From contig NC_014655.1 of the NCBI RefSeq assembly GCF_000166395.1, positions 3,534,001 to 3,598,000 of the forward strand: a stretch of 64,000 nucleotides of DNA, in the 5' to 3' direction. This document shows, in pieces, positions 59,421 to 62,061 of the stretch. Below the pieces are notes generated by a model. That model saw only the letters and a program-made list of their open reading frames with translations, was not told the origin of the DNA and did no database searches. Each line of letters begins with the position of its first letter. Position 1 is the first letter of the stretch. The stretch is from Leadbetterella byssophila DSM 17132. GTDB taxonomy: Bacteria; Bacteroidota; Bacteroidia; Cytophagales; Spirosomataceae. The translations under genes were made by a program, and so were the position numbers.

Positions 59421-59453
59421 GGAGATCTGCATTTGCAGATCTCCTTCTTTTTT
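59421..59453 (+). terminator. Strong terminator after the M23 peptidase gene
   Basis: GGAGATCTGC (59421-59430), loop ATTT, GCAGATCTCC (59435-59444): a perfect 10-bp stem, then TTCTTTTTT. It ends the + strand unit, leaving a 3' untranslated stretch of about 100 nt. Confidence 0.9.
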
Positions 59454-60282
59454 AGGCATTTAAAGCTTTTGTTACAGCATCTGATAAGCTGGTAGTGGGT
59501 CTGCCTATGATTTTAGAAAGTTCCTTTCCGTCATAGTACAGATCTCCATTTTTAGCTCCTTGATCAAAGGAAGCGAATACCTGAGCAAATTGTTCCGGCA
59601 TACCTCCCTGAGCTAAAGCTTTTGCATGCTCCTCTACACTTAGATCTTCGTAAGGGATAGTCTTATGTGTCTGTATGGAGATTTCCGCAGCAAGTTCCTC
59701 TAGAGTGAAGGCCTCGTCACCTGCTAGTTCGTAAACTTTTCCTTGAAGTTCTGGATGAAGAATAACTTTAGCCGCCGCTTCTGCATAATCAGCTCTGGTG
59801 GCACCGGAGATTTTACCTGCACCGGCACTTCCCACTAATTTCCCCATCTGAATAGCAGGCTGAACACTTCCGGTATAGTTCTCTGTATACCATCCGTTCC
59901 TCAAAATGGTATAAGGGATGTTACTTTCGGCTATAAGCGCTTCAGTCTCTAAGTGCTCTTTTGCTAGCATTAAACCTGATTTATCAGCTTTAAGTAGACT
60001 TGTATAGATAATGTGTTTAACTCCTGCTGCTTTTGCTGCTTCAATTACATTTTTGTGCTGCTGTGTTCTTTGACCTATAGCATTTCCGGAAATCAAAAGT
60101 AAGGTGTCTATCCCTTTTAAAACATTGGCATCAGCATTTTCATAGTCGAAGGCTCGTGCTTCTACTCCTGGTGCTGAAACCTTTTCAGGGTTCCTAACTA
60201 ATGCAATAGTGTCTTCTTTTGGTAAGTGTGTGATGACAAGTCGGCCCAGTTGTCCACTTGCTCCTGTTACTCCGTATTTCAT
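59452..60282 (-). CDS. NmrA/QorB-like SDR oxidoreductase
   Basis: A 276-residue atypical SDR (NmrA/HSCARG-like, quinone reductase QorB type): NAD(P)-binding YGVTGASGQLGRLVITHL at the N-terminus, LISGNAIGQRTQQHKNVIEAA near 65. QorB-type proteins reduce quinones with NADPH. Right upstream of its ATG is a TGTAAT-N7-GTTACA palindrome, matching the operator of the Rrf2 gene, so it is a likely target of that regulator. Confidence 0.85.
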   Translation of the reverse strand: MKYGVTGASGQLGRLVITHLPKEDTIALVRNPEKVSAPGVEARAFDYENADANVLKGIDTLLLISGNAIGQRTQQHKNVIEAAKAAGVKHIIYTSLLKADKSGLMLAKEHLETEALIAESNIPYTILRNGWYTENYTGSVQPAIQMGKLVGSAGAGKISGATRADYAEAAAKVILHPELQGKVYELAGDEAFTLEELAAEISIQTHKTIPYEDLSVEEHAKALAQGGMPEQFAQVFASFDQGAKNGDLYYDGKELSKIIGRPTTSLSDAVTKALNA

Positions 60283-60284
60283 AA

Positions 60285-60303
60285 TGTAATAATATTTGTT
60301 ACA
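60285..60303. promoter_or_regulatory. Rrf2-type operator copy 2, before the NmrA-like gene
   Basis: TGTAAT (60285-60290), 7 nt, GTTACA (60298-60303). Same size and spacer as the copy at 60765-60783, with one mismatch in the left arm. It is 3 nt from the NmrA-like ATG. Confidence 0.65.
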
Positions 60304-60320
60304 AAATAATATAAAAAAAA

Positions 60321-60731
60321 TTAATCAAATCCTTTTGCGAACTCTGCTAAGCTTTTCTTATCTAAATATTGTCTAAGTAGACTATCTGCCTCATGGCTTA
60401 ATTCTTCTAATTTTTGGTTAATTCTACTTCCAACCGGACAATTGCTATTGGTGTCTTTGTTTTTCTTACCTAAGATTTCAGAGTTCTTAACGGCAAGGTA
60501 GACTTCACCTAGACTGATTTCTTCCGGCTTTTTACTCAATTTAGAACCTCCGTCTTTTCCTTTTCTGCTATAGATAAGTCCTGCTTCATTCAGAGAACTT
60601 AATTCCCTTCTAACCATGACGGGATTGATGCAAATAGAGCCGGCGATATAATCAGAACTCACCCAATCTTCCTGGTTTTTAGCCAAAAGCGTCAGTACAT
60701 GTAGGGCCGTTGAAAATCTAGTATTGCTCAT
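60321..60731 (-). CDS. Rrf2-family transcriptional regulator
   Basis: A 136-residue winged-helix regulator (Rrf2). Helix-turn-helix at about residues 24-58 (SSDYIAGSICINPVMVRRELSSLNEAGLIY), then a wing KGKDGGSKL. It has Cys34 and Cys98 (NSNCPVG) but not the three-Cys iron-sulfur motif of IscR/NsrR, so it may sense by a thiol or by protein contact. It is likely autoregulated: its promoter contains the palindrome, and the NmrA-like gene follows. Confidence 0.9.
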   Translation of the reverse strand: MSNTRFSTALHVLTLLAKNQEDWVSSDYIAGSICINPVMVRRELSSLNEAGLIYSRKGKDGGSKLSKKPEEISLGEVYLAVKNSEILGKKNKDTNSNCPVGSRINQKLEELSHEADSLLRQYLDKKSLAEFAKGFD

Positions 60732-60741
60732 AATTATGATA

Positions 60742-60772
60742 CAAAGTTAATAGGAATTTTTATATGTAACAA
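60742..60772 (-). promoter_or_regulatory. Promoter of the Rrf2 gene (TTG-N20-TAACTTTG)
   Basis: On the minus strand TTG (60772-60770), 20-nt spacer, TAACTTTG (60749-60742). Exact consensus. The -33 element lies within the palindrome at 60765-60783. Confidence 0.75.
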
Positions 60773-60783
60773 AAAATGTTACA
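60765..60783. promoter_or_regulatory. Rrf2-type operator copy 1, overlapping the -33 element
   Basis: TGTAAC (60765-60770), 7 nt, GTTACA (60778-60783), a perfect inverted repeat. It covers the -33 box of the Rrf2 promoter, the place for a repressor. Confidence 0.7.
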
Positions 60784-60789
60784 AAAAAA

Positions 60790-62061
60790 TTATTTCCAGG
60801 TGAAGCCTAGTTTTTTCAGAGCAATTTGTATTTCTGGATTCTGCATGAACAGTTTCCAGATCAGTCCGGTTCTATAATTTTCTATCATGACCACTATAGG
60901 TCCCTGGTCTATAGCCAGGTAGGATGAGGCTACCCAGTTTTGTTCATCAGAGAATGCATCATAAAATCCATATGGCCCCCAAAGGTCTTTATGTCTTACT
61001 TCATAGAAATAACGTAAAGCTTCCATACTCTCCTTTGGCGTGTAAGGGAAAGAGGACAAAGCTGCTGTTGGCGTTATCACCCCTATATCATTTGTAGGAG
61101 AGTGGGCGTCATATCCCTTTGGGCTATCTGAAGCTGTTAATCCCCAGCATTTTGGCCCATAGTTCTTGAATCCTTTGGGATTTTCTACGCAGTATCTATA
61201 GTTGATCAATGCATGATTTACATTTTGTTCCCAATAATCGGCGTATCTATCTTTTAAATTTCGTGGATCAAGTCCCAGGAAGGAGTAGTGCGTAAAGAAT
61301 AGGGGACCACCATAATCAAAACCTAAAGGTAAAGATAAGTCGTAAAAGGTTTTGCCATTGTAAAAATGATCTCCTTTTGCATACACTTCGTGATATAGGT
61401 TTGGGTCAATGGGATGGGTAGGTGATGCGGAAGCTAAGATATAGGTTATCAAAGTTTCATTGTAGCCCCTCAAGGCAAAATTCATGGCCCACTCATGATT
61501 AGGACTCCAATGCCAGTACAGAACCTGATCTTTTACATACGCGTTCCAATCCACCTCTTCCCATATCCTTGTGATGATTTCTCTAAGTTCCGTTTCAATA
61601 ATAGTATTTTGGTCAAAATAGGCTCTTGCTGTAAGTAGGCCTTGAATTAAGAAGGCGGTTTCTACTAGATCTCCTCCATCATCCTTGGGACTAAATGGAA
61701 GAGTTGCTCCCGTTTCTCCATGTATCCAATGCGGAAACGCGCCTTTGTATCTTGGACTTTTTTCCAGAAATCTTGAGATCTTGAGTATCCTTTCTGCTGC
61801 TTCCTTTCTGCTCACCCAATTGCGCTCAGACGCTACTATCATAGCCATGATGCCCATGCCCGTTCCTCCTGTGGTACAAGTTTCGTCGCCATAGCCGAAA
61901 GCTTGATTGCTTCGCTCTCTGGCAAGCCCGGAAACAGGATGGCCAAACTCCCAAAAATATTGAAAGGTGGCCTTCTGAACCTTTTCTAATACTACTTCAT
62001 CAGAAAGGTCCTGGGCGAAGAGGGAAGTGCTCAATAGTAGTGCTAGCAGTATCCTGGTCAT
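60790..62061 (-). CDS. GH144-like glucanase (PF10091 glucoamylase family)
   Basis: A 423-residue exported protein with signal peptide (TRILLALLLSTSLFA) and an alpha6/alpha6-barrel domain that contains the PF10091 segments: FQYFWEFGHPVSGLARERSN (residues about 35-54), TTGGTGMGIMAMI near 63 and YGPKCWGLTASDSPKGYDAHSPTNDIGVITPTAALSSFPY-type text near 300-340. Chitinophaga CpSGL of this family is an endo-beta-1,2-glucanase (GH144). So it probably cuts beta-1,2-glucan in the periplasm. It is 40 nt downstream of glmS. Confidence 0.8.
   Translation of the reverse strand: MTRILLALLLSTSLFAQDLSDEVVLEKVQKATFQYFWEFGHPVSGLARERSNQAFGYGDETCTTGGTGMGIMAMIVASERNWVSRKEAAERILKISRFLEKSPRYKGAFPHWIHGETGATLPFSPKDDGGDLVETAFLIQGLLTARAYFDQNTIIETELREIITRIWEEVDWNAYVKDQVLYWHWSPNHEWAMNFALRGYNETLITYILASASPTHPIDPNLYHEVYAKGDHFYNGKTFYDLSLPLGFDYGGPLFFTHYSFLGLDPRNLKDRYADYWEQNVNHALINYRYCVENPKGFKNYGPKCWGLTASDSPKGYDAHSPTNDIGVITPTAALSSFPYTPKESMEALRYFYEVRHKDLWGPYGFYDAFSDEQNWVASSYLAIDQGPIVVMIENYRTGLIWKLFMQNPEIQIALKKLGFTWK

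What the first reader, a model, noticed from the sequence alone, without database searches (positions are those of the whole stretch)
60282..60783. Matching palindromes at an Rrf2 gene and the NmrA-like gene it precedes
TGTAAC-N7-GTTACA (60765-60783) covers the -33 box of the Rrf2 promoter, and TGTAAT-N7-GTTACA (60285-60303) lies just before the NmrA-like ATG. Equal arms, same 7-nt spacer and perfect placement strongly suggest one regulator controlling itself and its neighbour. The Rrf2 protein lacks the three-Cys iron-sulfur motif and keeps one Cys98, so it may sense quinones or reactive species by a thiol.
Basis: partly seen in the sequence, partly recalled or inferred. Interest (0 to 1): 0.62.

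Follow-up and report, generated by a model that had tools for sequence, protein, structure and literature searches.

The report
Redox-type repressor with two operators
A small bacterial regulator very probably switches off its own gene and a neighbouring quinone-detoxifying enzyme by binding two matching DNA sites; this kind of switch is known in other bacteria, but the second site sits in an unusual, strictly conserved place just after the regulator's own stop codon.

Summary
TGTAAC-N7-GTTACA (60765-60783) and TGTAAT-N7-GTTACA (60285-60303) are the only two TGTAAY-N7-RTTACA sites in the 4.06-Mb genome. Their 19-bp core, TGTAA-N9-TTACA, is the published operator of the Rrf2 repressors SifR and HypR. 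The window protein's closest solved relatives are YwnA (1xd7) and BC1842 (1ylf). Its partner resembles quinone oxidoreductase YtfG/QOR2. Across 53 Bacteroidota rrf2 loci, 49 carry site 1, 45 carry site 2, and a reversed-motif control scored 0. The shared-regulator interpretation is therefore strongly supported, though binding is untested.

Two corrections follow. The protein has two cysteines, not one: invariant Cys98, capping helix alpha-5 like SifR Cys102, and a private Cys34 whose position resembles HypR's partner cysteine. Site 2 is also not an enzyme promoter operator. It is anchored 15-22 nt after the rrf2 stop codon, behind an A-tract centred 22 bp from the site, lacks a promoter box, and lies at variable distance from the next gene. 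The same layout occurs in three Deinococcus plasmids and, less clearly, in Nostoc and Cupriavidus. In one Deinococcus, and probably Nostoc, both sites changed motif in parallel.

I read this as a SifR/HypR-like operon (new variant), with a stop-anchored auxiliary operator, possibly a transcription roadblock.

The parts
60321..60731 (-). rrf2 gene, 136 aa, SifR/YwnA/HypR-like Rrf2 repressor (winged helix; recognition helix residues 37-49)
   Evidence: Pfam Rrf2 E 6.3e-30; PDB YwnA 1xd7 E 3e-20 and 1ylf E 2.3e-18; AlphaFold2 mean pLDDT 82, Foldseek top hits 1ylf, 3k69, 1xd7
59452..60282 (-). NmrA-like / QOR2-type NAD(P)H quinone oxidoreductase gene, 276 aa
   Evidence: YtfG/QOR2 2zcu E 2.4e-79 over residues 4-275; triphenylmethane reductase 2vrb E 2e-45; Pfam NAD_binding_10 and NmrA
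60765..60783 (.). Site 1: operator TGTAAC-N7-GTTACA upstream of rrf2, covering the -33 element
   Evidence: conserved in 49/53 loci
60285..60303 (.). Site 2: operator in the rrf2/QOR2 gap, starting 17 nt after the rrf2 stop codon
   Evidence: conserved in 45/53 loci
60770..60772 (-). -33 TTG of the rrf2 promoter, inside site 1
   Evidence: TTG-N20-TAACTTTG
60742..60749 (-). -7 box TAACTTTG of the rrf2 promoter (Bacteroidota TAnnTTTG)
60313..60320 (-). A-tract (T8 on the coding strand) directly after the rrf2 stop, centre 22.5 bp from the centre of site 2
   Evidence: AnTm run of 7 or more in 40 of 46 site-2 loci; centre-to-centre distance 22-22.5 bp in most
60438..60440 (-). Cys98 codon, invariant thiol at the N-cap of helix alpha-5 (99-123)
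   Evidence: 35 of 35 aligned proteins; model
60630..60632 (-). Cys34 codon, found only in this protein of the aligned set; turn just before the recognition helix

Best explanation
The two palindromes are operators of the Rrf2 protein encoded between them. In the reduced state an Rrf2 homodimer binds site 1 over the -33 element and represses the rrf2-QOR2 operon. It also binds site 2, an auxiliary operator just past its own stop codon, which tightens repression of the enzyme without interrupting the regulator's reading frame. [quoted passage not shown] Shown by sequence: the sites, their conservation and parallel change, the promoter at site 1, the absence of a canonical promoter at site 2, the invariant Cys98, and the identity of both genes. 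Inferred from characterised relatives: repression, release on thiol modification, quinone reductase activity. Inferred from geometry only: how site 2 works. Roadblock of transcribing RNA polymerase is my first choice (about 0.4), DNA looping with site 1 about 0.25, a weak non-canonical promoter about 0.2, other about 0.15.
For: The core TGTAA-N9-TTACA equals the operator measured for SifR (Ka about 1e8 per M) and known for HypR (PMC9218516). SifR represses ywnB, an NAD(P)H quinone reductase, and loses DNA on quinone adduction of one alpha-5 N-cap cysteine (PMC9218516). Window protein: nearest structures YwnA and 1ylf by sequence and fold; Cys98 invariant and at the alpha-5 N-cap. Partner: QOR2/YtfG, E 2.4e-79. 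Footprint: site 1 49/53, site 2 45/53, reversed-motif control 0/53. The next gene is an NAD(P)-binding oxidoreductase in nearly all, either QOR2-type or the 212-217 aa YwnB-type. Parallel change at both sites in Deinococcus sp. KNUC1210 (TGTAGT-N7-ACTACA at both) implies one reader for both sites. Site 1 lies in a promoter (TAnnTTTG in 29/49, expected 4.0), site 2 does not (1/45, expected 3.0). No other exact sites in the genome. The two other Rrf2 paralogues in the genome have several cysteines, as in Fe-S types, and no such site nearby.
Against: No binding, expression or chemistry data exist for this protein. The 53 loci share ancestry and are not independent. The SifR-cluster signature HxxPNPxC is not kept here (NKDTNSNC). 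The partner is QOR2-type rather than the YwnB-type found in most relatives. Five relatives (L013, L020, L024, L027, L028) keep an rrf2 gene without site 2. The roadblock idea for site 2 rests on geometry only.
Confidence: 0.85

Rival explanations
1. Site 2 is the operator of a separate promoter for the QOR2-like gene, so that each gene has its own repressed promoter.
For: In this genome site 2 ends 2 nt before the enzyme's ATG, and a degenerate TTATTTTG lies just upstream.
Against: TAnnTTTG occurs near site 2 in 1 of 45 loci (expected 3.0) against 29 of 49 for site 1 (expected 4.0). The site-to-ATG distance varies from 2 to about 90 nt while the stop-to-site distance stays at 15-22 nt. In Deinococcus, site 1 sits 17 nt after a TTGACA but site 2 has none.
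Confidence: 0.2
2. Sites 1 and 2 are bridged by the repressor in a DNA loop of about 450-480 bp, helped by bending at the A-tract.
For: Both sites are conserved together in 43 of 53 loci. Spacing falls in two clusters, 445-452 and 476-482 bp, about three helical turns apart, and helical coherence is R 0.51 against a 95% null of 0.39. An AnTm tract without a TpA step is kept even where the T-run is replaced by A4-6T3-4.
Against: The two spacing clusters follow two clades, so coherence may be ancestry. Deinococcus spacings of 470-474 bp differ in phase. Rrf2 proteins are known as dimers, and no tetramer or looping is described in the papers read.
Confidence: 0.25
3. The junction palindrome works as an RNA hairpin or, with the T-run, as an intrinsic terminator or attenuator rather than as a protein-binding DNA site.
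For: It lies in the presumed transcript between two genes and next to a T-run.
Against: The T-run precedes the palindrome. Hairpins before the A-tract are weaker (mean -3.2 kcal/mol) than elsewhere in the gene (-5.2). Arm position 6/14 is most often C:A (39 of 94 sites; C:G only 4), which does not pair. Site 1 of the window clade lies upstream of the -7 box and so is not transcribed.
Confidence: 0.03
4. The regulator is an Fe-S Rrf2 sensor (IscR, NsrR or RsrR type) rather than a thiol switch.
For: Same fold. RsrR is a known Rrf2 regulator with a [2Fe-2S] cluster (PMC9218516).
Against: Only one conserved cysteine in the family and no three-Cys motif. The closest solved relatives are YwnA and 1ylf. 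NCBIfam IscR, NsrR and RirA scores are far below cut-off.
Confidence: 0.04
5. A different DNA-binding protein reads these sites and Rrf2 is a bystander.
For: No direct binding data.
Against: The motif equals the SifR/HypR operator and travels with rrf2 across phyla, including parallel changes at both sites. The genome's other two Rrf2 genes have no such sites nearby.
Confidence: 0.05

Closest known systems
SifR (Streptococcus pneumoniae, Rrf2 monothiol quinone sensor) and Bacillus subtilis YwnA-YwnB
   Same: Rrf2 protein without Fe-S motif, one conserved Cys at the alpha-5 N-cap, operator TGTAA-N9-TTACA, NAD(P)H quinone reductase as target (PMC9218516)
   Different: HxxPNPxC signature only partly kept; partner enzyme is QOR2-type; an extra Cys34; a second operator after the rrf2 stop codon; Bacteroidota host, whereas the SifR cluster was reported from Bacillota and a few Actinobacteria
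HypR-MerA (Staphylococcus aureus)
   Same: Rrf2 redox repressor in an operon with a reductase; TGTAA-x9-TTACA operator; two cysteines at matching profile positions (Cys33/Cys99' in HypR; Cys34/Cys98 here, inferred coordinates)
   Different: NCBIfam HypR score 72 against a cut-off of 180; target enzyme unrelated (MerA is a flavin disulfide reductase, PMC10715087); Cys34 not shared by relatives
RsrR (Streptomyces venezuelae)
   Same: Rrf2 redox regulator; partnered with an NmrA-type gene (from memory, not tested here)
   Different: RsrR uses a [2Fe-2S] cluster whose ligands are absent here
E. coli QOR2 / YtfG
   Same: Full-length sequence match, NmrA-like NAD(P)H quinone oxidoreductase (2zcu)
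   Different: In E. coli it is not next to an Rrf2 gene (from memory)

Membership tests
Rrf2 family (PF02082) | Rrf2 domain over the curated cut-off and winged-helix fold of the family | tested here: met
   104.5 bits, cut-off 30; Foldseek top hits all Rrf2 proteins
SifR/YwnA monothiol quinone sensors | Single conserved Cys at the N-cap of alpha-5 | tested here: met
   Cys98 in 35/35; helix 99-123
SifR/YwnA monothiol quinone sensors | HxxPNPxC signature | tested here: not met
   Window has NKDTNSNC; most relatives have PNPxC but not the His
SifR/YwnA monothiol quinone sensors | Operator TGTAA-N9-TTACA at regulated genes | tested here: met
SifR/YwnA monothiol quinone sensors | NAD(P)H quinone reductase (YwnB type) in the regulon | tested here: inconclusive
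   Partner is an NAD(P)H quinone oxidoreductase homologue of QOR2 type, not YwnB type
SifR/YwnA monothiol quinone sensors | Release from DNA by quinone adduction of the Cys | not testable with these tools
   needs purified protein
HypR | NCBIfam equivalog score above 180 | tested here: not met
   72.1 bits
HypR | Two redox cysteines forming an intersubunit disulfide | tested here: inconclusive
   Cys34 and Cys98 fall at matching profile positions; disulfide not testable
Fe-S Rrf2 regulators (IscR, NsrR, RirA) | Three cluster cysteines in the connector / alpha-5 | tested here: not met
   one connector Cys only
QOR2 / NmrA-like quinone oxidoreductases | Full-length match to a solved member | tested here: met
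   2zcu E 2.4e-79, residues 4-275
QOR2 / NmrA-like quinone oxidoreductases | NAD(P)H-dependent quinone reduction | not testable with these tools
   needs an enzyme assay

The most novel reading that the evidence does not exclude
Site 2 and its A-tract form a regulator-operated transcription stop: the repressor bound just after its own stop codon halts RNA polymerase on an A/T-tract, so the regulator's own message is completed while the enzyme's message is cut off. This single-operon device is shared by Bacteroidota, Deinococcota and, on one locus each, perhaps Cyanobacteriota and Betaproteobacteria.
Probability: 0.35. Interest if true: 0.65.

Novelty: new variant of a known kind. Interest (0 to 1): 0.48.

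Why it matters
It extends the SifR/HypR type of thiol-based repressor to Bacteroidota with an operator that can be tested directly. It also shows a second operator anchored to the regulator's stop codon and accompanied by an A-tract, a layout I did not find described in the papers I could search. If site 2 is a roadblock, it is a compact way to let a repressor be made while its target stays off. The strict geometry in distant phyla makes the question testable with a reporter plasmid.

Tried and rejected
Wider regulon in this genome: one-mismatch sites (39) are fewer than control (60), and the looser pattern TGTAA-N9-TTACA gives 8 places against 10 for the control, so I claim only the one operon. 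In 28 relatives the pattern CTGTAAY-N7-RTTACA marks mainly the rrf2 operon plus hits at about the control rate. Intrinsic terminator at the A-tract: rejected by folding. RNA hairpin reading: rejected, since arm positions do not co-vary as pairs. Strict helical phasing between sites: suggestive in Bacteroidota but confounded by clades and not kept in Deinococcus. Site 2 in Bacillota: absent. Bacillaceae plasmid loci have the sites in the upstream/divergent region, and Lactobacillales pairs are tightly packed without a junction site. Papers on Rrf2 with Bacteroidota operators or with roadblocks: none relevant found. A first tree attempt failed on group labels and was replaced by FastTree.

Full report
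Observation. Both palindromes are at the stated coordinates. The exact pattern occurs nowhere else in the 4.06-Mb genome, and TGTAAY-N7-RTTACA also hits only these two places exactly; one-mismatch sites are not enriched over a reversed-pattern control (39 against 60). By number alone two hits are unremarkable. Their position, one in each gap of a single two-gene operon, and their conservation are what matter.

Genes. The minus-strand gene at 60321-60731 encodes a 136-aa Rrf2 protein. Its nearest solved relatives are B. subtilis YwnA (1xd7) and B. cereus BC1842 (1ylf), by sequence and by fold of an AlphaFold2 model (mean pLDDT 82). The next gene, 59452-60282, matches E. coli YtfG/QOR2 over its whole length (E 2.4e-79). 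There are two: Cys98, invariant in all 35 aligned proteins and capping helix alpha-5 in the model, and Cys34, in the turn before the recognition helix and seen only in this protein. From the coordinates of the NCBIfam HypR match (protein 3-129 to profile 2-130), Cys34 and Cys98 fall at about positions 33 and 99, the pair that forms the HypR disulfide (PMC10715087). This is a coordinate inference; the HypR sequence itself was not aligned.

Known parallel. SifR of S. pneumoniae is an Rrf2 quinone sensor with one alpha-5 N-cap cysteine. It binds TGTAA-N9-TTACA, the same core as HypR's operator, and represses among others ywnB, an NAD(P)H quinone reductase (PMC9218516). The window motif TGTAAY-N7-RTTACA is the same 19-bp core.

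Footprint. I collected rrf2 relatives from the family, the class and GTDB contigs. Of 53 loci (window included), 49 carry the core with at most one mismatch upstream of rrf2 and 45 carry it after the rrf2 stop; 43 have both. The reversed motif was found at that level in none, at either place. The following gene is an NAD(P)-binding oxidoreductase in nearly all: QOR2-type in the window's clade, a 212-217 aa YwnB-type protein in most others; L064 is followed by a medium-chain quinone-oxidoreductase-like protein. Arm position 6/14 pairs are C:A 39, T:A 31, T:G 17 and C:G 4, so the arms follow a Y/R rule and not base pairing. The element is therefore read as DNA.

Two positions of site 1. In the window's clade site 1 covers the -33 TTG (TTG-N20-TAACTTTG here). 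In the larger clade it lies about 31 bp further downstream, directly after the -7 box, over the start of transcription. A tree places these as separate groups, with modest support values. Both placements suit repression.

Site 2. The junction site starts 15-22 nt (mostly 16-17) after the rrf2 stop codon, while its distance to the next ATG varies from 2 nt (window) to about 90 nt. Between stop and site lies an A-tract: an AnTm run of 7 or more in 40 of 46 loci, with mean length 7.4 against 4.7 (s.d. 0.2) in shuffled spacers, and its centre 22-22.5 bp from the centre of the site in most. In eight loci the T-run is replaced by A4-6T3-4, which keeps an A-tract but not a U-run. No stable hairpin precedes it, so it is not an intrinsic terminator. 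TAnnTTTG lies near site 1 in 29 of 49 loci (expected 4.0) but near site 2 in 1 of 45 (expected 3.0). Tract and site occur together (Fisher p 0.003 in Bacteroidota and 0.0003 elsewhere; ancestry not corrected).

Other phyla. Rrf2 homologues on plasmids were examined. All three Deinococcus loci have stop-T7/T8-site 2-oxidoreductase in GC-rich DNA. In Deinococcus sp. KNUC1210 both sites read TGTAGT-N7-ACTACA, a parallel change that implies one reader. In Nostoc both places carry GATACT-N5-AGTA-type repeats with a T7 after the stop, although the right arm of the second copy is imperfect. Cupriavidus has one-mismatch sites at both places with a shorter tract. Bacillaceae, Lactobacillales, Actinomycetota, Haloferax and most Alphaproteobacteria examined lack this junction site; two rhizobial loci have sites further downstream. 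These sites were found by targeted search in a small sample.

Mechanism. Best supported: reduced Rrf2 represses the operon from site 1; thiol modification at Cys98 releases it and induces the quinone reductase. The effector is inferred from SifR and HypR. For site 2, a separate promoter is disfavoured, looping is possible, and I rank an elongation roadblock first. The site is anchored to the end of the regulator's reading frame, so a stalled polymerase would already have copied, or nearly copied, rrf2. This last step is inference from geometry.

Verdict. The finding is sound and mostly explained by a known kind of system. The added value is its presence in Bacteroidota, the correction on the cysteines, and the stop-anchored second operator with its A-tract.

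Noticed in passing
window 60630-60632 (Cys34 codon): A second cysteine unique to this protein among relatives sits where HypR's Cys33 would be; possible independent gain of a dithiol switch.
   Followed up: partly
L105 1460-1952 (Deinococcus sp. KNUC1210 plasmid): Both operators changed in parallel to TGTAGT-N7-ACTACA, a natural specificity change that could be matched to recognition-helix residues.
   Followed up: partly
L111 (Nostoc sp. UHCC 0926 plasmid pn4): Both places carry a different repeat (GATACT-N5-AGTA) with T7 after the rrf2 stop; apparently a diverged operator pair.
   Followed up: partly
L107, L108, L109 (Bacillaceae plasmids): The region upstream of rrf2 (divergent SDR gene annotated in L107 and L109) holds two to four copies of TGTAA-N9-TTACA-like sites.
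   Followed up: no
L100 and L119 (rhizobial plasmids): Sites lie 29-70 nt after the rrf2 stop (two in tandem in L100), before an NTF2-like gene.
   Followed up: no
L028: Close rrf2 relative with neither operator and a different neighbourhood; perhaps relocated or decaying.
   Followed up: no
L005 (own genome, C1:345814-346206): Another Rrf2 gene with several cysteines sits beside a haem-copper oxidase-like gene; looks like an NsrR-type NO regulator.
   Followed up: no
window 60790-62061 (-): Putative glucoamylase-family protein (PF10091) directly upstream of rrf2 on the same strand, ending 6 bp before site 1; read-through into rrf2 is possible.
   Followed up: no
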